Part shown: positions 4,353 to 64,000 of the stretch, one piece after another
Layout: every line of letters begins with the position of its first letter
Numbering within the stretch: position 1 is the first letter of the stretch
NCBI RefSeq assembly: GCF_003762835.1
Contig: NZ_RJWA01000002.1
Coordinates: 620,001 to 684,000, forward strand
DNA from: Micromonospora sp. HM5-17
Lineage (GTDB): Bacteria > Actinomycetota > Actinomycetes > Mycobacteriales > Micromonosporaceae
Reading direction: 5' to 3'
DNA length: 64,000 nucleotides
Position numbers and translations under genes: made by a program
Notes under the pieces: generated by a model
Told to the model about the DNA's origin: nothing
Database searches by the model: none
What the model saw: the letters and a program-made list of their open reading frames with translations, nothing else

Positions 4353-4377
4353 CCGCCGGGGCCGGTGCGACCGGGTG

Positions 4378-5140: not shown

Positions 5141-5240
5141 CTCCCCGGAGCGGCGAGGATGGAAGGACGTGGCCCTCCCGCGTGCGCCTCCGCGCGGTGT
5201 CCGCTGTTGCCGACCTCGCCAGCCTCAACGCCCAGTAGCG

Positions 5241-5255
5241 GTATACTGTATGCAT
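5241..5255 (+). promoter_or_regulatory. oxc promoter with overlapping GntR operator
   Basis: GTATACTGTATGCAT lies 26 bases upstream of the oxc ATG. It contains TATACT, a good actinobacterial -10 hexamer, inside the palindrome. A regulator bound here would cover the -10 element, consistent with repression. The same motif recurs upstream of gntR, the aldehyde dehydrogenase gene and the reductase gene. Confidence 0.6.
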
Positions 5256-5281
5256 AGAGACCATGATGGAGGACTCTGACC

Positions 5282-44094: not shown

Positions 44095-44139
44095 GGCCCG
44101 AACCTCCGAACGTAGCCGGTCGACGATGTCTGGAGCATC

Positions 44140-45528: not shown

Positions 45529-45657
45529 CCGGGGGCGTGAGGTGACGCGCGAGGCCCGGGCGGCTGGCCGCTGGCGCGAGTCCACGTCCGGGGTTTCGTT
45601 GGTTGACCGTGGTGTCGCCGCGCCCGCGTGGCGGCTGGGGCGGAGGGGAGCGGCGGG

Positions 45658-47067
45658 GTGCTGACCAGACGGGACCTCATCCACTCGCGGCAGTTCCTGC
45701 GCCGGCGGCTGCTCGCCTCGTTCGTGACCCACCAGCCGGACCCGCTCGAATGGTCGGGTGTCCGACTGCCGGCCGCGACGTTGGTCGCGGTGATGGTGCT
45801 GGTCATCGCCGTCGCCGCGGTCGGGATCTACGGATTCATCCGCCCGGCCGGCAACAAGCGGTGGCAGTCCTGCGAACAGATCATCATCGAGGCGGAGACC
45901 GGCGCGCCGTACGTCTGCGGCAACGGGGTGCTCTACCCGGTGGCGAACTTCGCCTCGGCGGCGCTGCTGCGCGGCGTCTCGGAGAAGCCGATCCGGGTGT
46001 CTCGCGCCTCCCTGACCTGGAACCGGGGCATGCTGGTCGGGATTCCCGGCGCCCCGACCGTCCTGCCCGCGGCCAAGGACCTGATCGGGGCCGCCTGGTC
46101 GTACTGCGTCCGGCCGGCCCGGCAGCCGAACGGCCGACCGGAAAGCGTGGTGCTGGTCGGCGGTCAGCCCGTGGCGGGCCGGGGGAGCGCGCCGAGCCAG
46201 CTCGGGCCGGGAGAGGCGGTGGCGGTCGCCGACGCCGTCACCGGGCAGCTCTTCCTCATCCACGGCGGCAGCCGACACGAGGTACGCGACCGTGACGTGG
46301 TGAGCCAGGCCCTGGGAATCAACCGGCCGGACATCGTCCCGGTCAGCCCCGCGTGGCTCGCCGCCATTCCGACGGGACCGCCGCTGGACCGGTTGGAGGT
46401 GGCCGGGCGAGGCGGGTCGGTGAAGGGGCTCGCGGCCGTGAAGGTGGGGCAGATCGTCGTCGTGCAGGAGGGCACGCAGGCGCGGCGCTTCGTCGCGCGG
46501 CCGAACGGGCTGCAACCGCTGACCGAACTCCAGGAGGCGCTGATCCGGGCGACGGCCGACGACACCTCACCGGCGATCGCCAGCAACCCCGTGCAACTGG
46601 CCGGGGTCACCCAGCTGGAGCCGATGCCGACCCCGCTCGCCGGCGACGGCCGGCTGCCGGCGATCGTTCCGGCGGCGCGCAGCAACGGCGTGGTCTGCAC
46701 GGTGACCGCCGACGGCTCGGACCAGCGGGCGGTGACGGTCGGCGGTACGGTGCCGACCCGCGACCCGGCGGCCGTCCCCGCCCCCGCCGCCCCCGCCTCG
46801 GCGGCCGGGGCGCTGCTCGCCGACGAGGTCGTCGTCCCGCCCCGGCGCGGGGCCCTCGTCCGGTCGATGGCCAGTCCGAGCGCGGTCGACGGTCCGGTCT
46901 ACCTCGTCACCGAGACCGGCTGGCGGTACGCGATCGGTTCGGCAACCGCGCTGGATCGGCTCGGCTACCGCAACGTCGCGGCGGTACGGCAACCGAGCAC
47001 ATTGGTCGAGCGGCTCCCGCAGGGGCCGGTGCTGAGCGAATTGACTCTGGCAGGGTCTGGACCATGA
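45658..47067 (+). CDS. eccB: Type VII secretion core protein EccB
   Basis: A 469-residue protein with a short cytoplasmic N-terminus (TRRDLIHSRQFLRRRLLASFVTHQPD), the typical EccB opening, one membrane helix at about 45-68, and a large external domain of repeats in beta-rich form (MLVGIPGAPTVLP; AVADAVTGQLFLIHGGSRHEV; VDGPVYLVTETGWRYAIGS). It has the paired cysteines CEQ...PYVC near residue 75. GTG 45658 is chosen for GGAGGGGAG seven bases upstream. It follows eccD on the same strand. No eccE is seen in the window. Confidence 0.92.
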   Translation: MLTRRDLIHSRQFLRRRLLASFVTHQPDPLEWSGVRLPAATLVAVMVLVIAVAAVGIYGFIRPAGNKRWQSCEQIIIEAETGAPYVCGNGVLYPVANFASAALLRGVSEKPIRVSRASLTWNRGMLVGIPGAPTVLPAAKDLIGAAWSYCVRPARQPNGRPESVVLVGGQPVAGRGSAPSQLGPGEAVAVADAVTGQLFLIHGGSRHEVRDRDVVSQALGINRPDIVPVSPAWLAAIPTGPPLDRLEVAGRGGSVKGLAAVKVGQIVVVQEGTQARRFVARPNGLQPLTELQEALIRATADDTSPAIASNPVQLAGVTQLEPMPTPLAGDGRLPAIVPAARSNGVVCTVTADGSDQRAVTVGGTVPTRDPAAVPAPAAPASAAGALLADEVVVPPRRGALVRSMASPSAVDGPVYLVTETGWRYAIGSATALDRLGYRNVAAVRQPSTLVERLPQGPVLSELTLAGSGP

Positions 47068-49164: not shown

Positions 49165-49503
49165 ATGCCTAACGCGAACCTCGTACAGGGCGATCTTGAA
49201 CTGATGCAGGCCACCTCGGCCGACGTGGAACGGAACGCCGAGGAACTCGCCGCACTGGTGACGCAGCTGCGGTCGCTCTGCCGGAGCATGGAGGACCGGT
49301 TCAAGGGCCGGGCGGCGGAGAGCTTCCAAATGGCCGCCGAGGCCGGCAACACCGCCGCGGACCAGCTGAGCGTGGTCCTTCAGCAGCTCGGTCAGGCCAT
49401 GGGATTCACCGTCGACAACCTCGCGGTCAACGACTCCCAGGCCAGCAATACGTTCGTGGCGGTCAGCGACGGCGGCGTCCAGTCGATCCTGAGGGGAGCG
49501 TGA
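49165..49503 (+). CDS. WXG100 family protein (EsxB-like)
   Basis: A 112-residue helical-hairpin protein: helix 1 about residues 9-45 (ELMQATSADVERNAEELAALVTQLRSLCRSMEDR), a turn, helix 2 about 52-85. At the turn the WXG motif reads FKG (RFKGRAAESF), so Trp is replaced by Phe. Its stop is six bases before the ATG of the next WXG protein, the usual bicistronic arrangement. The pair probably forms a heterodimer exported by the EccC machinery. Confidence 0.85.
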   Translation: MPNANLVQGDLELMQATSADVERNAEELAALVTQLRSLCRSMEDRFKGRAAESFQMAAEAGNTAADQLSVVLQQLGQAMGFTVDNLAVNDSQASNTFVAVSDGGVQSILRGA

Positions 49504-49505
49504 CC

Positions 49506-49811
49506 ATGCAGCTGTTGGTGGACTTTGCGTCGCTTGAGGAACTCCAGCGGAACTTCCTCGCCAACATCAACGAGGTGGACGCGCTGTCGAAGCAGCTGCG
49601 TAGCAAGATCGACGCACTGATCGCCGGCGGTGTCTGGCAGGGTGGCTCCGCGATCTCGTACGACGACATGCAGGCGGACTGGGACAACGCAATGAAGAAC
49701 GTCCAGCTCGCCAAGCAGGCGATCACCAAGGCGATCAACGAGACGAGCCAGCTCTTCCAGCAGGCCGAGGCCGAGAACATGGCGCGGATCACCCGCGCCG
49801 GCCAGATCTGA
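49506..49811 (+). CDS. WXG100 family protein (EsxA-like)
   Basis: A 101-residue WXG100 protein with the canonical turn GVWQGGSAISYDDM (Trp-Gln-Gly) between two helices. The C-terminal part (FQQAEAENMARITRAGQI) ends in a charged helix as in ESX substrates. ATG 49506 is preferred: GGGGAG is seven bases upstream, while the overlapping GTG at 49500 would leave one base. Confidence 0.88.
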   Translation: MQLLVDFASLEELQRNFLANINEVDALSKQLRSKIDALIAGGVWQGGSAISYDDMQADWDNAMKNVQLAKQAITKAINETSQLFQQAEAENMARITRAGQI

Positions 49812-49816
49812 GCGGT

Positions 49817-51025
49817 TCAGCCCGATACCCGGCGGCGGTGGCGCAGCAGCGCCACCGCCGCCGCGTATCCGACCGCCACCAGCGCGGTCGCCAGTCCGAC
49901 GCCGCCGGCCCAGAGCAGTGCCCGTCGGGTGGTCGCCGGCATCCCCGGTTCCGGTGACGGCCTGACGGCCGCCGCCGGCATCGGCTTCGGGCTGGGCGAC
50001 GGCACCGGGGTGCCGATCGGCTCGGCCAGCGCCCGGTACGGATTCACACTGCCGTAGCCGTAGTCGACGCTGTACGCCCCGCCGGGCGTGCCATCGGCGG
50101 TGGCGAGGAGGTGTTCGGCCACCTGGGCTGCCGTCCACTTCGGATGGTTGCCCCGGACCAGCGCCGCCGCGCCGCTGACCAGTGCCGCGGCCGCCGCCGT
50201 ACCGCCGATCGCGACGTGCCCGTCGACCCGGGCCGCCGCGACCAGGTTGACCCCGGGGGCCATCAGGTCCATGTGCGGGCCGGAGCCCGAGTCCGTCCAG
50301 CGCTGCCCGGACTGGTCCACCGCGCCGACTCCGAGCACCCCCGGGTATGCCGCCGGGTAGGTTTCGCCAACCGTGTCGTCGCCGACCGCCGCCACCACGA
50401 CGATCTGTCGCCTGACCGCGTCCGCGACCGCGGACCGCAGCCCGGCACTGCCGCTGCCGACCGCGAACGAGACGTGGATGACGTCGGCCTTCAACGCGAT
50501 CGCCCGGCGGATACCGGCCGCGAGCCGGCCCGGTGTGACGTCCCGGTACCGGGTTGAGCCGGTGGCGTTCTCGCTGACCCGGATCGGGATGATCCGGGCC
50601 TCGGGGGCGACGCCGACCAGGCTGGCGTCCCCGTCGGGGCGGGCGGCGATCAGACTGGCGACCGCGGTGCCGTGGCCGACGCAGTCGATGGTGCCACCGG
50701 CCTCGTCAGCGACGAGGTCCCAACCCCGGTCGACGGCCTTGGCCAACTGACGATGGGAGGAGTCCACACCGGAGTCGAGCACGGCGACCCGGACCGTTCT
50801 GGCGGTGCCGAGCCGGTGTAGCCGACGCGGGTCGAGCCAGCGCTGCGCCCACTGGTCGCCGGTGGCGCGAGGGGCCGGTGCGGGCTTGCCGCCGAAGCAA
50901 CCGGGGGCGGCCAGGGCAGGTCTCGCCGCCAGCGACGGCGCGACACCGGCGAGCAACACCAGCACCGCGGCCCAGGCCGCCGCGGGCCGTCGAACGACCC
51001 GTCCACACCCGACTTTCCCTCGCAC
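49817..51025 (-). CDS. Mycosin-like subtilase with missing catalytic serine (MycP-like)
   Basis: A 402-residue membrane-anchored S8-family protein: signal peptide (residues 1-39), protease domain about 75-335, Pro-rich linker, C-terminal membrane helix about 370-392 and short basic tail, all as in ESX mycosins. Asp84 (VAVLDSGVD) and His118 (CVGHGTAVAS) are present. The expected GTS serine motif reads GGTAAAAALVSG, putting Ala277 where the nucleophile should be, and the oxyanion Asn segment (usually AAGN) reads AAVGDD with Asp216. It should be proteolytically inactive. Mycosins are also needed structurally for ESX stability, so a pseudoprotease role is plausible. The last codons overlap a hairpin. 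Confidence 0.88.
   Translation of the reverse strand: MRGKVGCGRVVRRPAAAWAAVLVLLAGVAPSLAARPALAAPGCFGGKPAPAPRATGDQWAQRWLDPRRLHRLGTARTVRVAVLDSGVDSSHRQLAKAVDRGWDLVADEAGGTIDCVGHGTAVASLIAARPDGDASLVGVAPEARIIPIRVSENATGSTRYRDVTPGRLAAGIRRAIALKADVIHVSFAVGSGSAGLRSAVADAVRRQIVVVAAVGDDTVGETYPAAYPGVLGVGAVDQSGQRWTDSGSGPHMDLMAPGVNLVAAARVDGHVAIGGTAAAAALVSGAAALVRGNHPKWTAAQVAEHLLATADGTPGGAYSVDYGYGSVNPYRALAEPIGTPVPSPSPKPMPAAAVRPSPEPGMPATTRRALLWAGGVGLATALVAVGYAAAVALLRHRRRVSG
49832..49863. terminator. 14-bp hairpin at the convergent esxA-like / mycosin 3' ends
   Basis: GGCGGCGGTGGCGC (49832-49845) pairs perfectly with 49850-49863 around AGCA. It lies inside the last codons of the mycosin gene (residues LLRHRRR) and 21 bases after the WXG gene stop, so it could terminate the latter while being coding for the former. 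Confidence 0.55.
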
Positions 51026-51048: not shown

Positions 51049-51453
51049 ATGACGGTCGACCCCGAGACGGTGCGGGCGATGCGCGCGCAGGCGGAGGAAC
51101 TCGCCAACCGGCTTCGCCAGATGACCGGGTCGATGTCCACTCTGCAGGAAAGACTGGCGGATATCCGGGTCACCGCGGTCTCGCGCGACGGACTGGTGCG
51201 GGTCACGGTGGGCAGTGACGGCAAGCCACGCGAACTGTCCCTGGACGCGCGGATCTACCGCGAGCCCGACTCACAGCGCCTCGCCGAAACCATCCTCGAC
51301 ACCATCGAGGTTGCCGGCGAGGAAGCGCGGCGGCGGGTCATGGAGATCTGCCGCCCGTTCGCCTCCGAGGAAGCCCTTCAGCAGTACGCTGACGGCGACC
51401 TCACCGGCGCGATGGAGCGGTTCCGGCGTCAGATGCCGTTCATGGGGGAGTGA
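51049..51453 (+). CDS. YbaB/EbfC-like protein
   Basis: A 134-residue protein. An N-terminal coiled helix (VRAMRAQAEELANRLRQMTGSMSTLQERLADI) is followed by a short beta sheet (VTAVSRDGLVRVTVGSDGKPRELSLD), the plan of YbaB/EbfC nucleoid-associated proteins, which often occur in actinobacterial type VII loci. No ribosome site precedes the ATG; TACCGT six bases upstream could be a -10 element of a leaderless mRNA. It is divergent from the mycosin gene across 23 bases and begins the operon that leads to the giant gene. It may be an adaptor rather than a DNA-binding protein. Confidence 0.75.
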   Translation: MTVDPETVRAMRAQAEELANRLRQMTGSMSTLQERLADIRVTAVSRDGLVRVTVGSDGKPRELSLDARIYREPDSQRLAETILDTIEVAGEEARRRVMEICRPFASEEALQQYADGDLTGAMERFRRQMPFMGE

Positions 51454-51458
51454 GGACG

Positions 51459-51779
51459 ATGGCCACGATCAGGGTCCTGCCCGGCGCCGAGTCTGCCGCC
51501 GCGCGCTTCGCGACGATGGCGGCTCGCGGCAACGATATCGTCGCCCGGGTTCAGGCCGTTGCCTCCTCCAGCCCTTTCGTGCCCGGTGACGCCGTGACAT
51601 CGGATGCGGCGGCGGATTTCGCCAGGCGAAGCGAGGAGTACGCGACGGCAGCGCAGCAGATTCTCGACGCGATCGCGCAGGGCAGTGACGCACCCACGAA
51701 GGCACTCGAGACTCTTGCCGAGGCGGACCGGATGTCCGGAAAGGCTTTCGGACAGCCAGGTGTGAGTGTCTCCGTCTGA
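51459..51779 (+). CDS. Small WXG-like helical protein
   Basis: A 106-residue Ala-rich helical protein (ESAAARFATMAARGNDIVARVQAVASS, DAAADFARRSEEYATAAQQILDAIAQGSD). It has the size and two-helix look of ESX substrates but no WXG tripeptide. ATG 51459 is preferred, with GGGGGAG eight bases upstream; GTG 51450 overlaps the previous stop. Its stop is five bases before the giant gene, so it may be a partner or chaperone of the giant protein's N-terminal WXG domain. Confidence 0.65.
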   Translation: MATIRVLPGAESAAARFATMAARGNDIVARVQAVASSSPFVPGDAVTSDAAADFARRSEEYATAAQQILDAIAQGSDAPTKALETLAEADRMSGKAFGQPGVSVSV

Positions 51780-51784
51780 CCTAG

Positions 51785-54700
51785 ATGGGTGTTGAGAAGC
51801 CAGACCTGGGCTGGTGGGAGTGGGTCTGGACGTACGTCGTCGCGCCCATCGCCGGGGGATCGGCATGGCCGCTGACCGACGAGGACCAGGTTAGGGCCAA
51901 GGCAGCCGAGTGGCGCGCCCTCAAGGCTGACCTGGAAGCGTACGGCCAGGACACCTCAGCGTCCCTGAATGACCTGGCCGCGCTGTGGCACGGTCCGGAC
52001 GCCGAGGCGTTCCGGCTGAAGGCCCACTACATCCTCGGCGCCGTTCAGGAGCTGTCCAAGGGTGCCGACGGCCTCGCCGAGCAGGCCGACCAGGCCGCGC
52101 TCGCCATCGAGTACGAGAAGTACAGCATCGTCCTGTCGGTGCTGTGGTGCTGCTTCGAGCTGGCGGCGATCCTCGTCGCGACTTTCTTCACCGGGGGGTT
52201 CGCCGCGCTGCTCGGCGCCGCGCCGATCACCATCGCCCGTTCCGCGGTCGCGCAGGCTGCCAGGCAACTGATGGAGATCCTGTCGCGCATCTTCGTGTCG
52301 AAGCTGGTGCGGGAGGGGTTCGAGGAGGCGCTGCAGGAGGTGCTCACCTCGATCCTTGCCCAGGCCGCCCAGATCATCGAGGGGACCCGCGACGGCTTCG
52401 ACCCGACGCTGCTGCGGGACAGCGCCCTGGGTGGCGCGGCAGGAGGCGTCGCGGGTCAGCTCACCGCACCGGCGCTCGGACTCGGCAAGGCCGCCCTCGG
52501 CCAGAACCCGGTGGTGAAGGGTGCGGGCGACATCCTCCTCGAGGGCGTGCACGACTCGTTCGCCAACAGCGTCGGCAATGCGACGGTCAACAGCCTGGTG
52601 TACGACCAACCGGTCAACCTGAGCGACTTCGTCCCCGGGCTGGGCGAGGTCGTCGCAGGCGGTATTCGGGAACGGATCGGCGACCAGGCTCACCAGAGCT
52701 ACCAGCGAATCGGCGACGCGCTCGGACTGTCGAACCTGGGCACGCCTCCGGTGGCCCCCGCGCCCGACCAGACGGGAACCCCATCGGCGACGCACCCGTC
52801 GGCACCGACCACGACCACCACGACGACGCCGACGGGTGGTGGTGCCGGCGGTTCGGTGGGCTCTGGTGGGTCGGTTGGTGCTGGTGCTCCGGTGGGTTCC
52901 GGCGGCACGGTGGGTGGTGGTATCGGCGGTTCGACGGGCTCCGGTGGGTCGGCCGGCGGTGCGTCGTCCGGCGGTGCCGGAAACCAGGACGGAAACGCCG
53001 GGTCGCCCAGGCCGGGGGAGCAGACGCGCCAGGGGGGCGGCACGCCGATCGGATCGAGCGCGCCCGAAAGCCCCATTCTGGGCGGCCCCGACACCAGCGG
53101 CCAGACCGGCGACCGTCCAGACGTCCGGACCGCGGATCCGTCGGGCGGCGCGGAGCACGGCCAGTCGCGGCCGCCGGAGGGCCGTACGGAGATACCGGGC
53201 GCGTCTGCCGGCACGGACACCGCCGGCGGCACCGTCACCGCCCCGGTGACCGGCGCCGATGCACCCCATCTCGCCGATGCGGCCGCCCCCGGCGTCTTCG
53301 GGGTCACCTCGCCCACCGCGGACTCCGGTGTCGGCCAGGTCGCCCCGGCGGCGGGTCCGGCCGGCCAGCCCGGGACGGTGGCAACCGGTGTCGGAGCCGG
53401 CGCGCCTGTCGGCGGTACGGGGCAGCCGGCCGTACCGCCGGGGTCGCAGATCCCGGCCACGGTTGCCTCGGCGGCGGGCACCGGTGCGGTCGCCACCCCG
53501 CCGGCTCCGTCGAACCCGACCGCTGCGTCCGCCCCGTCGAACGCGGCCGCGGTGACGGGCACGACGCCCACCCCGTCCCCCTCGACCGGAACGCCCACCC
53601 CCACCGCGTCGGGTGGCACCTCCGCTCCCTCCACCGCGGCCGGCACACCGGGCACGGCCATCCGCGGTGGTACGCCGAACCCGGCGCCGGATCCGTCGTC
53701 CGCGCCTGGTCGAGAGGCGCGGCCGGTCGCCGGCAGGACCGGCGGACCGCGTGATGGCCGCCCGCAGCGACCCCGGTCGGAGACTCCGGCGCCGGACGCC
53801 ACACCGCAGGACGACGGGTCACCGCTACGCCCGCCACTCGACTCCGATGCCTCGGCGGCCGCGGCCCGGCGCGAACCGGCGCACCGGCCCGCCGGGCGGC
53901 GCACGCCGCCGGGAAGCGAGCCGGACGGGCCGAGGCCGCCACGAGAGGTGCACGGGGACCCGGTGCGGGCTCCCGATCTGGTCGGCACCGGCACGGGACC
54001 CACCGACACCTCGCGGACCGCGGTCGAGCAGCCGGGCGCGCCGGCCGGGGTGGGCGAGGCGGATCCGGTTGGCATCTTCGAGCGCCTCTGGGCGGTGTTG
54101 CAGCAACGGGTGAACACGGGCCTCAGCGGCCCGGTGCAGTTCGACCCGGCGGCCAGGACCGCGCGGGTTCCGGCGCCGGCCGGTGGTCCGGACCTGCTCT
54201 TCACCGTGGCCTCGACGCCGGAGGGGATCCGGGCGCAGCGCAGCAGCACGCCGGAACGCCTGGCGGACGGAAGCCTGGTCATCCGGGTTGTCATCTCCAA
54301 CCGGTTGCCGCCCGGGGCGCGGCTCGATCCGGGCTGGTCCCAGCGCGACGTGTGGCTCAGCCGGATCGTCGAGCACGAACTCGCCGAGCACGGGGCCCTG
54401 CGTGCCGGCGGTTTCGTGGCGCGGACCCGCCGGCTGATCCGCGGCCGGACACGAGGCGCCGGCCAGCCCGACGCCCTCGCCCGCGGCGCCGACCCGGCCG
54501 CCACCAGACTGACGCCGCACGACGAGGGCCACCGGGCCGAGGTGCGGTATCTGGTGCGGGAGCTGGTCGAGCACCGGGCCGCCAACCGGGACCTTGCCGT
54601 CCGTGAGGTCCAACGGCAGCTCGGCCTGCTCCTGGACAGCCTCGGTGTCGGTACGCCGACCCGGGACGACCCGGAGGCCGCGCACGCGCCGGCGCGGCTG

Positions 54701-57700
54701 AACCTGCTGAACCTGAGCCCGGACGAACGCGCGATCGTCGACCCGCTGCTTCCCCATGACGCCGCCTGGCGCACCGACCTGCTGCCGCACGAGCAGACGC
54801 GGACCCGCACCGCGCTGACCGAGGCGTTCACCGAGCTGGCCCTGGTCGGCGCTACCGGCCCACACCGCAGACGCAGGCCGGTGACCGTCAACGTCACCTG
54901 GGCCGGTGGCGAGCGCATCCAGGTGCAGGTCGGCGGCGCGGCGCCCCGGCAGGTGAATGTCCGGCCGCTGTTGCTCCGGCTGTCGCACAGCGGGCTGTAC
55001 GGCACGGCACTGTCCACCCTGGCCCTCGACGAGCTGAGCCGGCTGCTCTTCACCGAGATCGGAACCGCGCTTGGTGGCCACAATGGTGACCAACCCCGGT
55101 TCGCCAGTGCGGACGCCCTCGCCGCGTATGCGCTCGCCGAGCGCCATCGTACGGGTCTGCCCGGGGACCAGCGGTTCGAGCCGGCAAGGCGGGAGGTCCG
55201 CCGACGGTTCCAGGAACGGCTGGAGCGGCTGACCCCACAGCAGGCGTGGGCCCTGGCCGAGGACCTGCGGGACGACCGGCTTCGAGGGCTGGTGACGGAC
55301 CGGTTCGGGCCGGGGCCGGACCCGGTGTTGGCACGGCGCAGGTCGGTCGCGCTGGCCGAGGAGACGGTGGCGACCGGATACCGCGCCGCCGACGCGGCCC
55401 AGGTGGTCCCCCGGGGACCGTCCCCGACCCCGGCCCCGTCCGGCGGGCACTCCGCGCCCGGCGTGGCCGGCCCTTCCCCCGGCCCGGACCGGTCCGGCAC
55501 CCGCCCCGGTCCCGAGGGCGAGCCGGCAGGGACCGACGTCATCTCCGCGAGCGCCCTTCGGATGGCGTACGAGTCGTACCGTGAGCGGCGCGAGCGACTG
55601 GACGCGTACGAGGTCGAGCGGGCCCGGGCGGTTCGGGCGCTGAACGAGACCGGAGATCCGGGCGAGCGCGCCGCACTTCTGGCGCGTCTCGGCGAACTCG
55701 ACGATTACGTGCTGCCGACCGCGAGGCAGGCTGCGGCGACGGCCCGGGCCGAGTTCGAACACGGGCTCGACGCCGTGATCGCGGCGCACGCGGAGGCCGA
55801 GCGGCGGCTGCGGCGGCAGGATCCGGCGCAGGACACCACCGGTCAGCGGGCGGCCCGGCTCGCGGAGCACCAGGCGCTGCGCCGGGCGTGGGAGTCGGCC
55901 CGGCAGACGTACCAGGGCCTGCTCGACCGGCGCGGCGTTCTGCTGGATCTGGCGGTCGAGGCTGACAGTCTCCGGTACCAGGCCGAGCAGATCCGCGACC
56001 GGGCCGGCCGGCGGACGCAGGGGCGTCGGGCGCTGACGAGGCGGGCGGACCGGCTGGAGGCCAGGGCCGACTGGCTGGACGCCGTGGTCCGCACCGAGCG
56101 GACCAGACTGGAACAGCGGCGGCGCGCCTTCGTGGACCAGGTGCGCGCCATCGAGGACCTGCACCGCGATTCGCGCCGGGGCGGCCCGGACACCCGGTCG
56201 CAGCGTCCGGGCCCCAGGCCGGGGGCGGCCCAGCCCCGGAGCACCGAAGAGGTCGTCCAGTCGGGGGTCGCGGCGCGCGTCGACGCGGTGCACCAGGCGG
56301 CGCTTCGCGCGGTGGACCGGAGTGACTGGCTGACCCTCGACGGCGACCTGCTGGTGGCCAGTCCGCCGGGCGGCCAGGCCACGCGGATCCGGCTCACCCT
56401 GCGGCCTCCGTTGGACCCGACCGGGTCACCGGACGGATTCGTGGTGCGGGTGGCGGACGGTCGACCGGGATCGCCGCTGATCACCGAGCTGGAGCTCGAC
56501 ATCGACCGGATCGCCCCGCTGGGTGTGCGGCAGCCCGATCTGACCCGGGTGGTCGGGGCGGCGGTCGTGGCCGGGGTGGCGCGGGCGGTCGAACGGGAGC
56601 GGCGCCTGCGTCGCCGTCGGCGGGCACGACCGTCCCCGGCCGAGGAGAACCGGGCCGCCGACCTCGCCGAACTCCGTTGGGAACTGCAGGCGCACAGCTC
56701 GCTGGTCCGGGAGCGCGGCACCGTGGCGATGCTGCTCGACTGGGCCGCCGGGCGGGAACCCACGGTCCCGAAGGGCGTCGACCCGGGCCTGATTCCCACC
56801 TACGCCGACCTCTTCGGGCCGGACAGGCGCCCGGACCCCTCCGCGATTCCGGAACTGTCAGCCCGGCTGGACGAACTCACGGCCGCCGAGGCGCGCAGCA
56901 GGCGCCGGATCGCCGACCTGCTGGAGCGGACCGGGGCGCTTGCCAGGCGCCGACGGTACCGGCAGCTGGCCCAGGCCGTGTGGCGCGCGGCGCCCGGGCG
57001 CAGGGACCTCGCCGACGCCCTGCGCTCCGCTCGTGACCTCGGCCAACGGGAGCGGCTGCAGCGGGAGCTGCGGCCGTACGGGCCGGCGGTGTACCAAGTC
57101 GGAACCGGGCGGGTGCCGGCCCTGGCCGCCCCGGCCGCGCCCCTGCCGGTCGCGCCAGAACCGAGGTTCGAGCTGCAACGGACGAGTCCGAGGATCGTCC
57201 TGCACGAGCACCTCGAGGGAACGGTGCCGCCCGGCACACTGCTGGAGATCGCGCGCCGCAACGGCATCGACCTGGGTGTCGACACCGCGGCGCAGCTGGC
57301 CGAGCGCTATCGCTACCGGAACTTCGACGACTTCCTGGTTGCCTGGCGCCTGATCCGGCCGGTGCTGCAGACGGAGTCGGACTTCCGCCAGGTGATGCTG
57401 GAGTACGCCCGGACCGCGGCCGAGCAGGGCGTCGTGTACATGGAGGTGATCTTCGCCCCGGCTGGCGCGATCTTCGACGGTGTCGACTGGCGTGCCGTGT
57501 TCGACGGCTACACCAGCGCTATCGCCGAGGCGGCGGAGCGGTTCGGCATCGTCGTCCGCCTCACCCCGGAGATCTCCACCAGCACCGAGCCGGCTGTGGC
57601 CGAGGAGGTGGCCCGGTGGGCCGTGGCGTACCGCGACCGGGGAGTGGTCGGGTTCGGGCTGGGCGGAGAAGTCTCCAGAGACTCGCTCGCGCCGTACGCG

Positions 57701-60700
57701 GAGGCGTTCCGGATCGCCCGTGCCGGCGGCCTGGGTGTGGTCCCGCACGCGGGCGAGACGGACGGCCCGGAGGGGGTCTGGGCCGCCCTGGAGTTGGACC
57801 CGGTACGAATCCGACACGGTATCCGGGCCACCGAGGACCCGGAGTTGATGGCGGAGCTGGCCCGCCGGGGTGTGGTGCTCGACGTCGCCATCACCTCCAA
57901 CGAGCGGACCGGTGCGGTGTCGAACCCGGTCGAGCGGGTTCGCCAGCTCGTCAGGGCCGGTGTCCTGGTGAGCGTCAACAGTGAGGATCCGGCGTTTCTC
58001 CACACGGATCTGCGCCGGGAGTTCGCGCTGGCCGAGCGTGCCGGGCTGGACGGTCGCCGGGCGTTCGAGGCCGGGTTGGCGGGAGTGCTCGGCGGCGACG
58101 AGGTCCGGGCCCACCTGCGGCGGCTCGCCGCGGAGGCGAGCTGGCCCTCGTCGTCGGCGGGTCCCACCCCGCCCCGAGCGGACCTGCCGGTCGCTCCGCT
58201 GGCCGCCGCCTCGGCCGAGGCGGCGCGTCGGCTCGCCGACAGCCTGGTGGTTCCCGCGCTGCGCGACGCCGGATTGATCCGAACGGCGTGGTGGGTCGAC
58301 GGGCAGACGCTCGCGGTGCTGACCCCGGACGGCGAGCAGGTCGACGTCCGTCTGCCGGCGGTCGACCGGAACCAGGCCGGGCGTCGCGGTGAGCACCTGC
58401 CGGCTCTGGTCGCCGAGGCGGTGGTGGACCAGCTCTACCCCCCGCGGGCCGGTGACGTCCGCCCGGTACCGCGGTTCAAGGCTCTGGCCCGGCTTCACCA
58501 GGTGGCGCTCAGCAGCCGACTGGCCGCGTCGCTGCGGGCACCGCTCGAGGAGCGGATGCGGGATCTGGTCGAGGGCCGCCCGCCGACCGTCTGGTCCGAC
58601 CCGGCCGAGCCGCCGCTTTCCGCGTACGAGCGTTACCTGGTCGACCGCCTCAGCCCGGACCAGGACGGGAGGCGACGACCGGATCCGGACCCCGACCGGC
58701 TGCGTGAGATCGCCGCCGCCGAGGCCGCGCTCACCGCGTTCACGGCCTCCTCGGTGACGGCCGGGCTGGTCCGGGCCGCCGCGTTGCAGCCCGATGGGCA
58801 GGTCGCGGTCACCCTGCCCGAGCTGGCACCGGATGGGTCGGGGAACAGGTCCGTGACGGTTCCCGTGCCGACTCTCGACCTCGCGGCACTGCCCGCGCTG
58901 GACCGGCAGCCGGCCACCGGGGTCGAGCTGGCCGTCGACCGGGCACTGCCGGCAGTCGGGCGGCAGCTCGGCGTCGCCCGCTCCGCCGACCGGGGCAGCC
59001 GGTTGAGCGAAGCCGAGCGGGCCGCGCTGCCGGACGTCGGCGAGTTGCACGGGTTCGCGGTGCTGCGGGAGCGGGTCGCGGCCCGCTGGGCGGCAGCGGT
59101 GGACCGCGCCGAACCGAACGAGGTGCTGGAGAACTTCGGCCGGCTGCTCGACGAACTGGACGCCGAGTTCGAGGCTCGCGCCGAGCGGTTCGGGTTACTC
59201 GCCACAGAGTACGGTCCGGCGCCGAACCAGGCTGGCCTTGGGCTCCTCTCCCCACACCTGCGCCAGTGGGTCGCGGCCGTCGAGCGTCGTCGCGCCCGTG
59301 GTGTCGGACCTGACGGGCGGGGCGCGGTCCCGGCGGCGAGCTCCACCGCCGTCGTACCGGCAGCGGGGGCGGGACAGCTCTCGCCGACCGGTCAGGATCC
59401 GGACGTCCCGGGCGGCGAGGTGGCCGGCGTGGACGAGATCGCCGAGACACTGGGCGGGTTGTCCCCGGTGGAGCGGCGGGTCCTGGAGTCGGTCGTACGG
59501 GTGCTGCCCACCATCAACGTCCCTGGTTACCGGGTGTCGCTCGGCTCGGACGCGGTCCTGCGGCTGATCCCGGACCGGCGCTGGCGGGCACGCGTCCGGG
59601 CGCGGCGTCCCGTCCGGATCTCCCTGCTCGGTGCGGGGACGTTCCCGGACCCGGCGAACCTGCCGAGGACGGCCTCCAACCTGGATGACGACGTCACAGC
59701 CTGGCTCACCGGCCTGATAGAACGGTCCACAGGCCGACGGTGGACGTCCCGGCGCCGGGACCCGGGATCGGGCCTCACCCCGCCCCGGACCGGTCCGTCC
59801 GGGTCGGGTACCCCGGCCCCATCCGGACCGCGTCCGGAGCTGGTCGTGCCGCCGCGGTCGGTGACCGGTCTGCCCGACCATGGTGCTCCGGCCGACCCGG
59901 CCGGTACCCGGGCCGACGCTCTGGCAGCGCTCCAGGGCCTGGAGACGACGCCGGCTGATGGGACCCCCCGGGCGCCCGCCGGGTACACCCTGACGTTCCG
60001 CTCCGACCTGGAAACACTGGTGGCCGAGCCGGGCGAGGGCAGCCGCGCCCCGGCAGTCGCGTTCCGAGTCGTCTCCGAGCCGCTCGCGGACGCCGGGACG
60101 GCGACCCGGAGGATGGGCCGGCAGACCCCGGACGGCGTGACCGAGGTGGAGATCGTCGTCTCGCCGACGATCCCGGTCCAGGATCGGCCGTCGGCCGTCC
60201 GGCGCGCCGTGGCCCAGCTGGTCGGGGAAACTCTCTGGGAGATCTCTGGCGACCGGCGGCGGGGCGGAGATCCCGCGCAGGCCGCCGCGGCGTGGGCGGC
60301 CTCGCGGGTGGCGTTCCGGCCGGAGGATGTCGCGGAACTGCGTACCGCGCTGGTCGACCGGGCCCGGTCGGCGAAGGACCGCCGCGCCGAGTACGACCGG
60401 CGGATCGGCCGGCTGCTCGACCGGCTCGGGGTCGGTCGGCCCGTTCCGGCGGGCACCGGCGCAACCATGGCGACAACCGACGCCGTCCGCGACGCAGTCT
60501 TGAGCCGGCTCGTCCGGGAGGTGGTCGATCCGACGACGGCGGGGGGCGGCCCGGCGCTCGACCCGGACGAGACGGAGACCCTGCTGCGGCGCCTCGCCGC
60601 AGCAGAGGCGCCGTGGCGTGCCTCGGCGCGGCAGCAGGAGGTGCGCGAGGCAATCCGGCAGGCGGTCGCCGACCTCGTCGACGTCGGTCTGCTGACGCGG

Positions 60701-63700
60701 TCTGGTCCGCAGACCGGCGGATGGCCCCCGAGGCCGGGCGAGTTGCGGACCCGCGACGGGAAGGCGATCGACATACCGGTCGCCGGCGAGATGATCGACA
60801 GGCTTGTTGGCTCCGCTGACATCGGCGAGCGACTGCGGGTGCGGGCCACCGTGGAGGTCGTCCGTCAGGTCGTCCGCCAGAGCGACCCGGGGTCGGGGGT
60901 CAGCGACCTGCAGACGGTCCAGATTCTCGCCCGTCTGCGGCAGCGGGTGTTGCCGAGCCGGCGTGGCGAGTACGACCGGATGCTACGGACCCTGCTCGAC
61001 GGCCTGTCGATGGCCGATCTGGATGGGCTGCGCAACGAACCGCTGCCGGACGATCTCCGTCGGGAACTCGCTCCTCGACTGGTCGACCGGGTGATCGTCG
61101 AGTCGCTGCCGCTGCTCGGCGAGCTGAAGGTCCAGACCCCTTCGACGGACCTGTCACCGGGCGCGCCGATCAGGTTGACCCGCAGCGACGGCCAGAGGGT
61201 GGAGCTACCTGGGGCCTTCCACACCGGGCTGCGGGATCTGCTGCTGTCGCGGATGGCGGAGGGCCAGGACCTCTCCTGGCTCCGGGCCGAGGCCGCGGCC
61301 CGGCTCGGCGCCGCGGTGGCGTGGCGGTCGGGTGACCGGACACCGCTGGAAGGTGCCCTGGTCGCGCTCGGCCGGTTGCACGCGGACTCGTCAGCGCCGC
61401 AGGAGCGCCAGGCGGCCGCGCTGCGTGAGGCGATCGAGCAGGTGTCCCGGGAGATTCTCGCCGAGCACTGGCCGACCGTTCCGCGGCAGAGCAGCCTGAC
61501 CACGTCGGCGGTGGATCTGGTCGCCCGGACGGAAACGCCGGAGGACGACCCACAGGTGGCGGTGCTGCGGTCTGGGACCCTCGACAGCCTGATCGAGAGG
61601 TTGGGGTGGCAGGTCGCCGCGGCACGGCAGGCGCTGTCCAGCGGCGCCCTTCCCGAACACACCGCCCTGGTCGAGATGTTCGATGAGGCTGTTCGGTCGC
61701 TGGCTGACCAGCTAGCCAGGGCCGAGCAGGCGTTGCGTGTCCGCGCCGAGGAGATCCGCAAGGCCCAACGGGACGCGGACGAGCAGGTGAGAAAGGCCGA
61801 AGAAAAGCGTGGACAGGATCTGCGCGAGGAGGCCAGGGACAAGTCGGATGCGGAGCTGCGCCGTGGGGACTGGAGCCGCTACGACGGCCTGGCGTGGCGC
61901 CGTAGGTGGGCGGCGGGTGCGCAGCTGCAGATCGCCAGGGACGATGCCGCCCGAAACGAGCGGCGGGCCAAGGCCTACGAAGCAGCTGCCACGGCGGCGA
62001 AGGCGGCGAGTGACCGGTTCGCGGAGCTCGTGGCCCACCTGCCGCAGCTCGACATCGCGGACGCGTCGCAGCGGTCCGCGGCGGTCGGTGACTTCCTGCA
62101 GCGGGTGAACGCGGCGCGCGGTGAGTACGGCACGTACCGGGCGCGCCTCATGCAGGCGATGCCGCGGGTCGCGTTGCACGCCACCGCTTCCGACGGCGAC
62201 CTACCGTTCCGTCGGGCGCTGGCGAAGAAGATCCACGACATGGTGGCGGAGAGCCGGTCGGGCCCGGTGCCGACCGCCGTCGCGGCGGAGCTCGCTCCGG
62301 AGCGCTGGGAACGTGATCTCCTGACTCGCTGGCGTTACGTGGCGAGTGACGACGGCACGGTGTTCCAGCTCGGCTCGGACGCCGAGGTGCACATCAGATT
62401 CGTTCCGACCGGTCTGCCCGTCGAGGTTCCCCAACCTCCGGCGAACTCGAACAGGATGATTCTGGCGCAGTTGCCGCAGCATCCTCCGGGCAGTCGCGGC
62501 CTCCGTGCCGGCCTCAATCGAGAGTTGGGTCTGAAGTCGTCGTTCACGCTGAGCCCCAGCCTCATACCGGCGGGGCGGGCTCCGGTGTGGGACGCGGTGC
62601 GGGAGTTGCTGGGTGACAGGGTCAAGCTTCGAATCGGTGCCGGCTTCTCCCGACGGTTCTCGACGTTCGGTAAGGGGGACCGTTACGCCCTGCCCGGCCA
62701 GGTCAGCGACAACCGGCTCGGTGGGGTACTGGTCGACATCGCTGGTTACTGGGAAGTCCGCGTCCGCACCGCCGAGTCGCTGCGCCGGGCCCAGGAATCG
62801 GGACGGGGGGACGGGTGGAGCGACTGGGTCAAACTGACCCGGGGCGCCCCCGACGATCCCCTGTCCGCGCGGATGTGGGTGCCACACCCGTACACCGAAC
62901 CGCCTCCGAGCGACGTGGTCCGGATCGACCCGGGGGAGCGCGACGAGCGGTTCCCCGAGCACTCGGTGACCGGGCTCACCGGACTACCCCGTGCCTACAA
63001 CGCGATTCTGGCGACGCTCGACATCGACAACCGCAAGGTGGGCGACACGCCGGCCCGGCAGTTGTCGGTGTTCCTGTTCGAGGAGTATCCGGCCCGGCTG
63101 GCGCAGGCGGCCAACCATCCGCACGGGATCAGCACCGTGCTCACCGACGACGGCAAGCCGGTGGCGCGGGTCATGATCCGCACCGTTCCGGACCACACGA
63201 AGGCCCGGATGGTGGGCCGGCCGATTCTCAAGTACTACCTGGAGAGGTTGCGAACCGCGTTCGCCAACACCGCGGGTGGCTCGACGGCCGGCGGCGGCCG
63301 TGCTGCGGAGCTGACCCTGGTGATCCAGAGGTTGTTCGAGGGCACCCAGCTGGAGAACATCGCCGCCGGGATCGGTGAGTTTCTCGCCAGGGTGCGCTTC
63401 GTGCCGAGGTTCGACGGAAGTCGGGGCTGGAGCGACGGGTTCTCGGCGGAATTCAGCAACACCGACGTGAGCGACCGGCGTGCCACCGGATACACCCAGG
63501 GATACCACATCCCGCTGCGGCACGAGATCGTCGTGCACCGCTTCGACCAGGATGGGCCGACACCCATCCACCTCACCCCGGTGCCGGGCGAGGCGCTGTT
63601 CCGGATGACCGAGTCGGACGCCTACCGGTACGGCCTGCCGGTGGCTGCGGAGGCTCTCCAGCGGGATCCCAACGGCAGGGTGCGGTTGCGTGATGACCCG

Positions 63701-64000
63701 GTGTCCGAACCGCCGCCGGGGCGGGCTGGCCAGCCGCCGGTGTTCCTGGGTGACGGACCTGGCCAGGTGCCGGGCTCGGGGCCCGGTATCGCCGGGAACC
63801 TGACCGGCGTCGACGGCCCGGACGGGTTGCGCGCCCAGGTGCAGGCGGCACTGACCCGGAAGGGGGTTCTGCCGGAGGTGGATCAGGACGGCTTTCCGGT
63901 GTATCCCGACGGGAAGTGGCCGTCCACGCAGCAGATCGTCGACGACCTCGACAACCTGCAGGCGGTGAACGCGATCTCGGCCGAGTGGCTGGAGGCGCAG
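51785..64000 (+). CDS. Giant WXG100-like multidomain protein with internal adenosine deaminase domain (3' partial)
   Basis: I followed this frame by eye from the ATG at 51785 (an in-frame TAG lies directly upstream) to the window end: 4,072 codons without a stop. Residues 1-110 are a WXG100-like domain with a CpnT-like opening (LGWWEWVWTYVVAPI, then W68-H-G). Residues about 113-150 are hydrophobic. Residues 320-760 are Pro/Gly/Thr-rich linker. Helical and coiled-coil regions follow (about 1260-1480). Residues about 1800-2125 are an adenosine deaminase TIM barrel: LHEHLEG (His1807, His1809), PHAGE (His1988, Glu1991), RHG (His2011) and NSEDP (Glu2067-Asp2068). Another coiled coil is near 3300-3405. 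It has no good ribosome site and is probably coupled to the upstream small gene. It is a probable secreted effector or toxin; the C-terminus lies outside the window. Confidence 0.85.
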   Translation, partial: MGVEKPDLGWWEWVWTYVVAPIAGGSAWPLTDEDQVRAKAAEWRALKADLEAYGQDTSASLNDLAALWHGPDAEAFRLKAHYILGAVQELSKGADGLAEQADQAALAIEYEKYSIVLSVLWCCFELAAILVATFFTGGFAALLGAAPITIARSAVAQAARQLMEILSRIFVSKLVREGFEEALQEVLTSILAQAAQIIEGTRDGFDPTLLRDSALGGAAGGVAGQLTAPALGLGKAALGQNPVVKGAGDILLEGVHDSFANSVGNATVNSLVYDQPVNLSDFVPGLGEVVAGGIRERIGDQAHQSYQRIGDALGLSNLGTPPVAPAPDQTGTPSATHPSAPTTTTTTTPTGGGAGGSVGSGGSVGAGAPVGSGGTVGGGIGGSTGSGGSAGGASSGGAGNQDGNAGSPRPGEQTRQGGGTPIGSSAPESPILGGPDTSGQTGDRPDVRTADPSGGAEHGQSRPPEGRTEIPGASAGTDTAGGTVTAPVTGADAPHLADAAAPGVFGVTSPTADSGVGQVAPAAGPAGQPGTVATGVGAGAPVGGTGQPAVPPGSQIPATVASAAGTGAVATPPAPSNPTAASAPSNAAAVTGTTPTPSPSTGTPTPTASGGTSAPSTAAGTPGTAIRGGTPNPAPDPSSAPGREARPVAGRTGGPRDGRPQRPRSETPAPDATPQDDGSPLRPPLDSDASAAAARREPAHRPAGRRTPPGSEPDGPRPPREVHGDPVRAPDLVGTGTGPTDTSRTAVEQPGAPAGVGEADPVGIFERLWAVLQQRVNTGLSGPVQFDPAARTARVPAPAGGPDLLFTVASTPEGIRAQRSSTPERLADGSLVIRVVISNRLPPGARLDPGWSQRDVWLSRIVEHELAEHGALRAGGFVARTRRLIRGRTRGAGQPDALARGADPAATRLTPHDEGHRAEVRYLVRELVEHRAANRDLAVREVQRQLGLLLDSLGVGTPTRDDPEAAHAPARLNLLNLSPDERAIVDPLLPHDAAWRTDLLPHEQTRTRTALTEAFTELALVGATGPHRRRRPVTVNVTWAGGERIQVQVGGAAPRQVNVRPLLLRLSHSGLYGTALSTLALDELSRLLFTEIGTALGGHNGDQPRFASADALAAYALAERHRTGLPGDQRFEPARREVRRRFQERLERLTPQQAWALAEDLRDDRLRGLVTDRFGPGPDPVLARRRSVALAEETVATGYRAADAAQVVPRGPSPTPAPSGGHSAPGVAGPSPGPDRSGTRPGPEGEPAGTDVISASALRMAYESYRERRERLDAYEVERARAVRALNETGDPGERAALLARLGELDDYVLPTARQAAATARAEFEHGLDAVIAAHAEAERRLRRQDPAQDTTGQRAARLAEHQALRRAWESARQTYQGLLDRRGVLLDLAVEADSLRYQAEQIRDRAGRRTQGRRALTRRADRLEARADWLDAVVRTERTRLEQRRRAFVDQVRAIEDLHRDSRRGGPDTRSQRPGPRPGAAQPRSTEEVVQSGVAARVDAVHQAALRAVDRSDWLTLDGDLLVASPPGGQATRIRLTLRPPLDPTGSPDGFVVRVADGRPGSPLITELELDIDRIAPLGVRQPDLTRVVGAAVVAGVARAVERERRLRRRRRARPSPAEENRAADLAELRWELQAHSSLVRERGTVAMLLDWAAGREPTVPKGVDPGLIPTYADLFGPDRRPDPSAIPELSARLDELTAAEARSRRRIADLLERTGALARRRRYRQLAQAVWRAAPGRRDLADALRSARDLGQRERLQRELRPYGPAVYQVGTGRVPALAAPAAPLPVAPEPRFELQRTSPRIVLHEHLEGTVPPGTLLEIARRNGIDLGVDTAAQLAERYRYRNFDDFLVAWRLIRPVLQTESDFRQVMLEYARTAAEQGVVYMEVIFAPAGAIFDGVDWRAVFDGYTSAIAEAAERFGIVVRLTPEISTSTEPAVAEEVARWAVAYRDRGVVGFGLGGEVSRDSLAPYAEAFRIARAGGLGVVPHAGETDGPEGVWAALELDPVRIRHGIRATEDPELMAELARRGVVLDVAITSNERTGAVSNPVERVRQLVRAGVLVSVNSEDPAFLHTDLRREFALAERAGLDGRRAFEAGLAGVLGGDEVRAHLRRLAAEASWPSSSAGPTPPRADLPVAPLAAASAEAARRLADSLVVPALRDAGLIRTAWWVDGQTLAVLTPDGEQVDVRLPAVDRNQAGRRGEHLPALVAEAVVDQLYPPRAGDVRPVPRFKALARLHQVALSSRLAASLRAPLEERMRDLVEGRPPTVWSDPAEPPLSAYERYLVDRLSPDQDGRRRPDPDPDRLREIAAAEAALTAFTASSVTAGLVRAAALQPDGQVAVTLPELAPDGSGNRSVTVPVPTLDLAALPALDRQPATGVELAVDRALPAVGRQLGVARSADRGSRLSEAERAALPDVGELHGFAVLRERVAARWAAAVDRAEPNEVLENFGRLLDELDAEFEARAERFGLLATEYGPAPNQAGLGLLSPHLRQWVAAVERRRARGVGPDGRGAVPAASSTAVVPAAGAGQLSPTGQDPDVPGGEVAGVDEIAETLGGLSPVERRVLESVVRVLPTINVPGYRVSLGSDAVLRLIPDRRWRARVRARRPVRISLLGAGTFPDPANLPRTASNLDDDVTAWLTGLIERSTGRRWTSRRRDPGSGLTPPRTGPSGSGTPAPSGPRPELVVPPRSVTGLPDHGAPADPAGTRADALAALQGLETTPADGTPRAPAGYTLTFRSDLETLVAEPGEGSRAPAVAFRVVSEPLADAGTATRRMGRQTPDGVTEVEIVVSPTIPVQDRPSAVRRAVAQLVGETLWEISGDRRRGGDPAQAAAAWAASRVAFRPEDVAELRTALVDRARSAKDRRAEYDRRIGRLLDRLGVGRPVPAGTGATMATTDAVRDAVLSRLVREVVDPTTAGGGPALDPDETETLLRRLAAAEAPWRASARQQEVREAIRQAVADLVDVGLLTRSGPQTGGWPPRPGELRTRDGKAIDIPVAGEMIDRLVGSADIGERLRVRATVEVVRQVVRQSDPGSGVSDLQTVQILARLRQRVLPSRRGEYDRMLRTLLDGLSMADLDGLRNEPLPDDLRRELAPRLVDRVIVESLPLLGELKVQTPSTDLSPGAPIRLTRSDGQRVELPGAFHTGLRDLLLSRMAEGQDLSWLRAEAAARLGAAVAWRSGDRTPLEGALVALGRLHADSSAPQERQAAALREAIEQVSREILAEHWPTVPRQSSLTTSAVDLVARTETPEDDPQVAVLRSGTLDSLIERLGWQVAAARQALSSGALPEHTALVEMFDEAVRSLADQLARAEQALRVRAEEIRKAQRDADEQVRKAEEKRGQDLREEARDKSDAELRRGDWSRYDGLAWRRRWAAGAQLQIARDDAARNERRAKAYEAAATAAKAASDRFAELVAHLPQLDIADASQRSAAVGDFLQRVNAARGEYGTYRARLMQAMPRVALHATASDGDLPFRRALAKKIHDMVAESRSGPVPTAVAAELAPERWERDLLTRWRYVASDDGTVFQLGSDAEVHIRFVPTGLPVEVPQPPANSNRMILAQLPQHPPGSRGLRAGLNRELGLKSSFTLSPSLIPAGRAPVWDAVRELLGDRVKLRIGAGFSRRFSTFGKGDRYALPGQVSDNRLGGVLVDIAGYWEVRVRTAESLRRAQESGRGDGWSDWVKLTRGAPDDPLSARMWVPHPYTEPPPSDVVRIDPGERDERFPEHSVTGLTGLPRAYNAILATLDIDNRKVGDTPARQLSVFLFEEYPARLAQAANHPHGISTVLTDDGKPVARVMIRTVPDHTKARMVGRPILKYYLERLRTAFANTAGGSTAGGGRAAELTLVIQRLFEGTQLENIAAGIGEFLARVRFVPRFDGSRGWSDGFSAEFSNTDVSDRRATGYTQGYHIPLRHEIVVHRFDQDGPTPIHLTPVPGEALFRMTESDAYRYGLPVAAEALQRDPNGRVRLRDDPVSEPPPGRAGQPPVFLGDGPGQVPGSGPGIAGNLTGVDGPDGLRAQVQAALTRKGVLPEVDQDGFPVYPDGKWPSTQQIVDDLDNLQAVNAISAEWLEAQ

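What the first reader, a model, noticed from the sequence alone, without database searches (positions are those of the whole stretch)
51785..64000. Giant open frame (at least 4,072 codons) in a type VII secretion locus, carrying an internal adenosine deaminase domain
The frame begins directly after two small secretion-associated genes and runs uninterrupted to the window edge. The N-terminus has a WXG motif and a hydrophobic segment like CpnT-type ESX effectors; the middle has a clear adenosine deaminase barrel. ADA domains are normally free enzymes. An ADA inside a giant exported protein suggests purine-nucleoside attack on a competitor or host, or extracellular purine processing. Deaminases are known in polymorphic toxins, but this architecture with the ADA in the middle is one I do not recall.
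Basis: partly seen in the sequence, partly recalled or inferred. Interest (0 to 1): 0.88.

Follow-up and report, generated by a model that had tools for sequence, protein, structure and literature searches.

The report
Giant exported toxin with altered deaminase
A bacterium of the Micromonospora kind carries one uninterrupted gene for an 8,061-residue protein that looks like an exported weapon against other bacteria with a tRNA-cutting tip, and the adenosine deaminase buried in its middle is a captured enzyme whose active site appears to be disabled or re-purposed.

Summary
The frame at 51785 runs past the window edge to a stop at contig position 695970: 8,061 codons. It follows a type VII secretion locus and reads as a T7SS-linked Rhs polymorphic toxin: WXG100-like N-terminus, thousands of residues of modular carrier, RHS shell, and a C-terminal tip of the CdiA Bp1026b tRNase type with all four reported catalytic residues. 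A small gene overlaps the stop; homologues follow the same tip in 4 of 5 close relatives, so it is probably the immunity gene.

The middle domain (1802-2086) really is an adenosine-deaminase barrel. But the catalytic Glu position holds Val (Glu in 41 of 43 compared sequences) and the zinc/base Asp position holds Glu (Asp in 43 of 43); the zinc histidines remain. It nests in a clade of free deaminases on a long branch. I read it as a captured deaminase that no longer does its normal reaction, not as the weapon. Among 354 family genomes no other listed match (E<=1e-45) lies in a giant frame.

Giant actinobacterial multi-domain toxins were published in 2012; this is a new variant with an insert I did not find in print.

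The parts
51785..64000 (+). Giant open frame, residues 1-4072 here; it continues outside the window to contig position 695970 (8,061 codons). Outside the window, held in locus L006: DUF6531, RHS repeats and Rhs core (residues 6886-7917), CdiA_C tip (residues 7979-8041), and the overlapping 80-aa probable immunity gene (L006:12971-13213)
51815..52267 (+). WXG100_2 N-terminal domain (residues 11-161)
52118..52237 (+). hydrophobic segment, residues 112-151
53987..55102 (+). carrier module, residues 735-1106; recurs at residues 5207-5507 and in other giants
57188..58042 (+). adenosine deaminase barrel, residues 1802-2086
57671..57673 (+). codon 1963: Val at the catalytic Glu position
57983..57985 (+). 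codon 2067: Glu at the zinc/base Asp position
62030..64000 (+). carrier core, residues 3416 to about 4600 (continues outside the window), with matches in all seven other giant frames examined
51450..51779 (+). small gene directly before the giant
51049..51453 (+). YbaB/EbfC-like gene
49817..51025 (-). subtilase (position and type of a T7SS mycosin)
49165..49811 (+). two WXG100 genes (49165-49503 and 49500-49811)
44140..47067 (+). EccD (44140-45528) and EccB (45628-47067)
40129..44301 (-). EccC-type FtsK/SpoIIIE ATPase (start codon not settled)

Best explanation
It is a giant (8,061-residue) Rhs polymorphic toxin exported by the neighbouring type VII secretion system. Shown by sequence: T7SS-type N-terminus beside a T7SS locus; long modular carrier shared with other giants; RHS shell; nuclease tip of the CdiA Bp1026b tRNase type; an overlapping small gene whose homologues follow the same tip elsewhere. 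Inferred: the N-terminus brings the protein to the T7SS, the RHS shell encloses and releases the tip, the tip cuts tRNA in a competitor, and the small protein protects the producer. The deaminase in the middle is a free ADA-clade enzyme captured into the carrier. With Val at the catalytic Glu position and Glu at the zinc/base Asp position it most likely does not deaminate adenosine at a useful rate and serves as a binding or spacer module (receptor, nucleoside or partner binding) rather than as a second warhead.
For: T7SS genes upstream. WXG100_2 N-terminus, also at the N-terminus of 6 of 6 other complete giant frames scanned. RHS repeats, DUF6531, Rhs_assc_core, CdiA_C. Tip matches 4g6v (E 2e-4), given as a PD-(D/E)XK tRNase with catalytic E187, D214, D223, K242 in PMC9086364 (passages read); by the spacing in the alignment all four are kept. 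Tip in 13 of 300 family genomes, own included, 5 others at 58-75% identity at the ends of other frames; homologue of the small gene next to it in 4 of those 5. ADA: V1963 where 41 of 43 have Glu, E2067 where 43 of 43 have Asp; H1807, H1809, H1988, H2011, D2068 kept. It departs at 14 of 58 near-invariant columns, free members at 0-5 of 45-49 in a leave-one-out count. It nests with 35 of the 40 fetched free deaminases (support 87/99) on a branch of 1.34 against a median of 0.16. The D295E and D296A mutants of mouse ADA (1fkw, 1fkx) and a substrate-bound D295N mutant of a plant relative (6ijn) have been crystallised (entry titles), which marks this Asp pair as catalytic.
Against: Export, release of the tip and toxicity are not shown. 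Loss of activity is inferred from sequence: two free relatives (L086, L090) also lack the Glu (Pro there) and are not known to be dead; Glu1962 sits beside the changed position and might stand in. CRISPR Cad1 shows that an ADA domain with altered active-site residues can take a new substrate, ATP (PMC12669630, passages read). The barrel has kept its zinc histidines, which free decay would not favour. The general Pfam score stays high (215 bits). No homologue of the small gene was found beside the tip in L102. The tree program warns that the long GIANT branch makes its exact place unsure.
Confidence: 0.62

Rival explanations
1. Active second warhead: the ADA domain works on adenosine or deoxyadenosine outside the cell or in the target.
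For: True ADA barrel with all three zinc histidines and the equivalents of His238 and Asp296 kept; 46-54% identity to the 44 best-scoring other matches.
Against: Catalytic Glu and zinc/base Asp positions changed; 14 of 58 near-invariant columns changed.
Confidence: 0.1
2. Retooled enzyme: the domain still does chemistry, but on another substrate, as Cad1 does with ATP.
For: Kept metal histidines with changed catalytic residues; Cad1 precedent: TaqCad1 differs from canonical ADAs at two active-site positions, lacks adenosine deamination and turns ATP into ITP (PMC12669630, passages read).
Against: Cad1 keeps the zinc Asp (Asp548), which is Glu here; the giant has no Glu at the catalytic position; there is no second instance that shares these residues, so no sign that they were selected.
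Confidence: 0.15
3. Fossil: a deaminase gene fell into the carrier by chance and is drifting without function, tolerated because the carrier is a long spacer.
For: Only one instance among the listed matches in 354 family genomes; long branch; residues 1107-2684 have no match in the seven other giants.
Against: Frame intact over 8,061 codons; 44 of 58 near-invariant columns, all zinc histidines and the fold are kept.
Confidence: 0.13

Closest known systems
Giant multi-domain actinobacterial toxins (SACTE_5178 group; Zhang et al. 2012, PMC3482391)
   Same: Giant actinobacterial proteins with several effector-type domains in one chain; the longest recorded there has 13,652 residues (passages read).
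   Different: The internal domains named in the passage are metallopeptidases, caspases, ART and MCF1-SHE; the word adenosine does not occur in the held text, the first 300,000 characters. Sequence relation to SACTE_5178 was not tested.
Rhs/YD polymorphic toxins with CdiA-type tRNase tips
   Same: DUF6531, RHS repeats, Rhs-associated core, CdiA_C tip, small gene next to the tip.
   Different: Some 6,900 residues of carrier with an ADA barrel stand before the shell; five other frames with close tips have 348-2409 codons.
Carrier-sharing giants of the same bacterial family (G075, G055, G023, G121 twice, G106, G036)
   Same: WXG100_2 start in 6 of 6 complete frames; shared core and modules.
   Different: No A_deaminase in the six scanned with Pfam and no blastp match to residues 1107-2684 in any of the seven; other ends (calpain-like, GT4-conflict).
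Free adenosine deaminases of the same clade
   Same: 46-54% identity, same barrel, zinc histidines.
   Different: Free enzymes; canonical Glu in 38 of the 40 fetched and Asp in 40 of 40.
CRISPR-associated Cad1 (CARF-ADA)
   Same: An ADA barrel inside a larger conflict protein with changed active-site residues; found as a weak sequence and a structural match.
   Different: Intracellular, about 600 residues, keeps the zinc Asp, acts on ATP (PMC12669630).
CpnT (mycobacterial ESX effector)
   Same: WXG-type N-terminus and T7SS link (that PF25547 covers CpnT is recalled).
   Different: CpnT ends in an NADase (recalled); here the tip is CdiA_C.

Membership tests
Adenosine deaminase (PF00962) | ADA TIM-barrel sequence and fold | tested here: met
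   215 bits against cut-off 27; 3ou8 E 1e-32; best folds are ADAs
Adenosine deaminase (PF00962) | Zinc-binding histidines (HxH and HAGE) | tested here: met
   H1807, H1809, H1988
Adenosine deaminase (PF00962) | Catalytic Glu and zinc/base Asp | tested here: not met
   V1963 and E2067; so it is an ADA-fold domain, not shown to be an ADA enzyme
Adenosine deaminase (PF00962) | Deamination of adenosine | not testable with these tools
   needs an assay
T7SS (ESX) substrate | WXG100-type N-terminus next to T7SS genes | tested here: met
T7SS (ESX) substrate | Export dependent on the system | not testable with these tools
   needs a knock-out
Rhs polymorphic toxin | RHS/YD repeats and Rhs-associated core | tested here: met
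   PF05593 18 stretches; TIGR03696 65.7 bits against 32.5
Rhs polymorphic toxin | Exchangeable C-terminal toxin domain | tested here: met
   Same tip at 58-75% identity at the ends of five other frames of 348-2409 codons
Rhs polymorphic toxin | Adjacent immunity gene | tested here: inconclusive
   Homologue of the small gene next to the tip in 4 of 5 close loci; protection untested
CdiA Bp1026b-type tRNase | E, D, D, K catalytic residues | tested here: met
   Residues 7951, 7981, 7990, 8009, same spacing as E187, D214, D223, K242
CdiA Bp1026b-type tRNase | tRNA cleavage | not testable with these tools
   needs an assay
CpnT | C-terminal NADase domain | tested here: not met
   Pfam reports CdiA_C at the end and no NADase domain up to E 1
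SACTE_5178-type giant toxins | Giant actinobacterial chain with several effector-type domains | tested here: met
   8,061 codons, ADA barrel and CdiA_C tip
SACTE_5178-type giant toxins | Homology of the carrier to SACTE_5178 | not tested
   record not fetched

The most novel reading that the evidence does not exclude
The altered ADA barrel is a second, retooled effector in the same chain: a metal-binding deaminase-fold domain that acts on, or sequesters, a purine metabolite or signal in the target, giving a two-part weapon with a tRNase tip. It would be the first TIM-barrel deaminase described in a polymorphic toxin, as far as my paper searches reach.
Probability: 0.15. Interest if true: 0.78.

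Novelty: new variant of a known kind. Interest (0 to 1): 0.5.

Why it matters
Giant actinobacterial toxins are poorly understood, and what their thousands of middle residues do is unclear. Here one middle module can be traced to a free enzyme, and the comparison suggests that its normal chemistry was given up while fold and metal histidines stayed. That makes a clean question testable: can a metabolic enzyme be re-used as a binding or structural part of a secreted weapon? It also warns that an enzyme domain inside a giant toxin need not be the warhead.

Tried and rejected
Frameshift or assembly error: rejected. Other giants with ADA: not found within the reach of the searches. Pfam on six of the seven other giant frames (in pieces; the first 22 codons of one were left out for length) shows WXG100_2, calpain, GT4-conflict, DUF1707 and weak matches, no A_deaminase; the seventh, G055, was not scanned with Pfam, but blastp of the giant's two pieces against pieces of all seven gave no match in 1107-2684 at E<=1e-5. 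ADA in 354 family genomes at E<=1e-45: of 72 listed matches none but the window's lies in a frame over 1,050 codons; more distant ADA-in-giant cases would be missed, and the list is cut off. Flank 2087-2480 in 200 genomes: own plus one weak match (E 5.6e-4). Carrier part of 407 residues in the order: 2 of 397 genomes, own included. Genome-collection scan with the carrier alignment A3: three loci, all from giants already held. Plasmid collection: one carrier match (a chromosome-sized Nonomuraea record, 25% identity, E 6e-17, frame not examined); 95 records with ADA matches, of which the 15 shown are annotated as adenosine deaminase, or have no feature or no annotation there; frames not checked. 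N-terminus in the PDB by sequence: none. Papers: four held papers have both 'polymorphic toxin' and 'adenosine deaminase'. In three I read the passages: tRNA or editing deaminases and cytidine-deaminase-fold toxins, among them an 86-residue candidate T6SS effector of the Tox-deaminase kind said to have potential adenosine deaminase activity (PMC10469887), not an ADA barrel; the fourth (PMC4012209) was seen only in the listing. Searches showed no ADA-barrel toxin in listing or abstract start (one search listed 20 of 40 papers). Kinetics of mouse ADA mutants are recalled, not read (one search found no paper). No dN/dS test: no close orthologue. Structure was predicted from the single sequence and is of low confidence, so residue distances were not judged.

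Full report
Observation. The window is G000:C12:620001-684000 of a draft genome. The ATG frame at 51785 is open to the edge and its stop ends at contig position 695970, giving 8,061 codons. The G+C of the three codon positions keeps one pattern along all 17 blocks examined. Seven other frames in the same bacterial family share the carrier: 3,363, 3,495, 6,658, 9,099, 9,385, 15,064 (runs off its contig) and 15,374 codons. The gene is therefore best taken as one real giant gene. The organism's name is not given; three of the genomes with related giants are Virgisporangium aurantiacum, Virgisporangium ochraceum and Dactylosporangium fulvum, by record titles and equal contig lengths.

Setting. Upstream lie an FtsK/SpoIIIE ATPase of EccC type, EccD, EccB, a pair of WXG100 genes and a subtilase, then a YbaB-like gene and a small gene with no clear family. 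The giant begins with a WXG100_2 domain (residues 11-161), as do the six complete other giant frames that were scanned with Pfam. The N-terminus points to type VII export; export itself is inferred.

Body. Blastp against pieces of the seven other giants shows a modular carrier: a module at 735-1106, which recurs at 5207-5507 in the same protein (37% identity; a weak third likeness is at 2605-2964, E 2e-4); a core at about 3416-4600 with matches in all seven; and smaller modules at 4685-4779, 5555-5810 and 5953-6763. Residues 1107-2684, in which the deaminase lies, match none of the seven. The carrier segment was found in 7 of 200 family genomes, own included, and a shorter part of it in 2 of 397 genomes of the order, own included.

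End. From residue 6886 the protein is an Rhs toxin: DUF6531, 18 RHS-repeat stretches, Rhs_assc_core, then CdiA_C at 7979-8041. The tip's only PDB match at E<=0.1 is 4g6v (E 2e-4). A review lists that structure among PD-(D/E)XK CdiA toxins, target tRNA, with residues E187, D214, D223 and K242 (PMC9086364, passages read); the alignment has identical residues with the same spacing at 7951, 7981, 7990 and 8009. The tip occurs in 13 of 300 family genomes, own included, five others at 58-75% identity, each at the end of its frame (348-2409 codons). An 80-residue Cys-rich protein starts on the giant's stop (TGATG), and a homologue lies next to the tip in 4 of these 5 loci, not in L102. This is the pattern of an exchangeable toxin-immunity cassette.

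The deaminase. The domain is a true ADA barrel: Pfam 215 bits, PDB sequence match E 1e-32, predicted fold closest to solved ADAs (the model is from one sequence, mean pLDDT 65). The equivalog model for adenosine deaminase scores just below its cut-off (212.6 against 216.55). In 354 family genomes there are 72 listed matches at E<=1e-45; the 44 best others are 46-54% identical, and no match but the window's is in a frame over 1,050 codons. The window's genome has three further ADAs, but no other match at this cut-off, and the six congeners have none, so the donor's free gene is not seen in this genus. In five loci of free relatives (L019-L023) the neighbours listed by script did not look T7SS- or RHS-like by eye; they were not scanned.

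The active site. Forty of the 71 other listed matches and the genome's own three other ADAs were aligned with the giant's domain. Zinc histidines H1807, H1809, H1988, histidine H2011 and Asp D2068 are kept. The catalytic Glu position is V1963 (Glu in 41 of 43, Pro in 2) and the zinc/base Asp position is E2067 (Asp in 43 of 43). Near these positions the giant and most relatives align without gaps, so the Val is not an obvious alignment slip, though Glu1962 is its neighbour. The giant departs at 14 of 58 near-invariant columns; free members depart at 0-5 of 45-49 in a leave-one-out count with a slightly stricter cut. On a maximum-likelihood tree the giant's domain falls among 35 of the 40 fetched free deaminases (support 87/99) with an end branch of 1.34 against a median of 0.16; the program warns about long branches. 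The identification of these columns with Glu217 and Asp295/296 of mouse ADA is recalled knowledge that fits the entries 1fkw (D295E) and 1fkx (D296A) and the D295N mutant 6ijn crystallised with its substrate (titles). That such mutants of mouse ADA are severely impaired is recalled; only for Asp296 did I read a passage saying so (PMC12669630).

Reading. The most economical account is an antibacterial Rhs toxin with a tRNase tip, in whose carrier a free deaminase was captured and lost its normal chemistry while the barrel and metal histidines stayed. What it does now is open: binding or spacing (most likely), a changed substrate as in CRISPR Cad1, or nothing. Against the main reading stand the kept zinc histidines, two free relatives without the Glu, the neighbouring Glu1962, and the lack of any assay.

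Known or new. Zhang et al. 2012 describe giant actinobacterial proteins with several toxin domains, the longest 13,652 residues (PMC3482391, passages read), so the kind is known; the held text of that paper (the first 300,000 characters) does not contain the word adenosine. The searches showed no ADA barrel in a polymorphic toxin; one of the four papers was seen only as a listing. I therefore call it a new variant of a known kind.

Noticed in passing
L034-L037 (G075:C81:10341-56465) and L038-L040 (G055:C34, up to 45195): Open frames of 15,374 and at least 15,064 codons sharing the carrier, the first with a WXG100_2 start and calpain-like stretches near its end; longer than the 13,652-residue toxin named as the longest by Zhang et al. 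2012.
   Followed up: partly
giant residues 864, 5322, 5664 (first one at window 54374): Carrier modules with a recurring HExxE motif, perhaps a degenerate metallopeptidase-like unit.
   Followed up: no
L086 and L090: Free deaminases of the same clade with Pro at the catalytic Glu position: possible natural pseudo-deaminases or enzymes of other specificity.
   Followed up: no
L049:5000-19999 (G121:C12): A giant frame of 9,099 codons with four DUF1707 stretches inside.
   Followed up: no
L046:6749-19999 (G106:C1): A giant frame ending in a GT4-conflict glycosyltransferase domain (258 bits): another end on the same carrier.
   Followed up: no
L006:13120-13851 and L006:15143-15766: Two Cys-rich open frames downstream of the giant that look alike by eye; the first has no Pfam match, the second was not scanned.
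   Followed up: no
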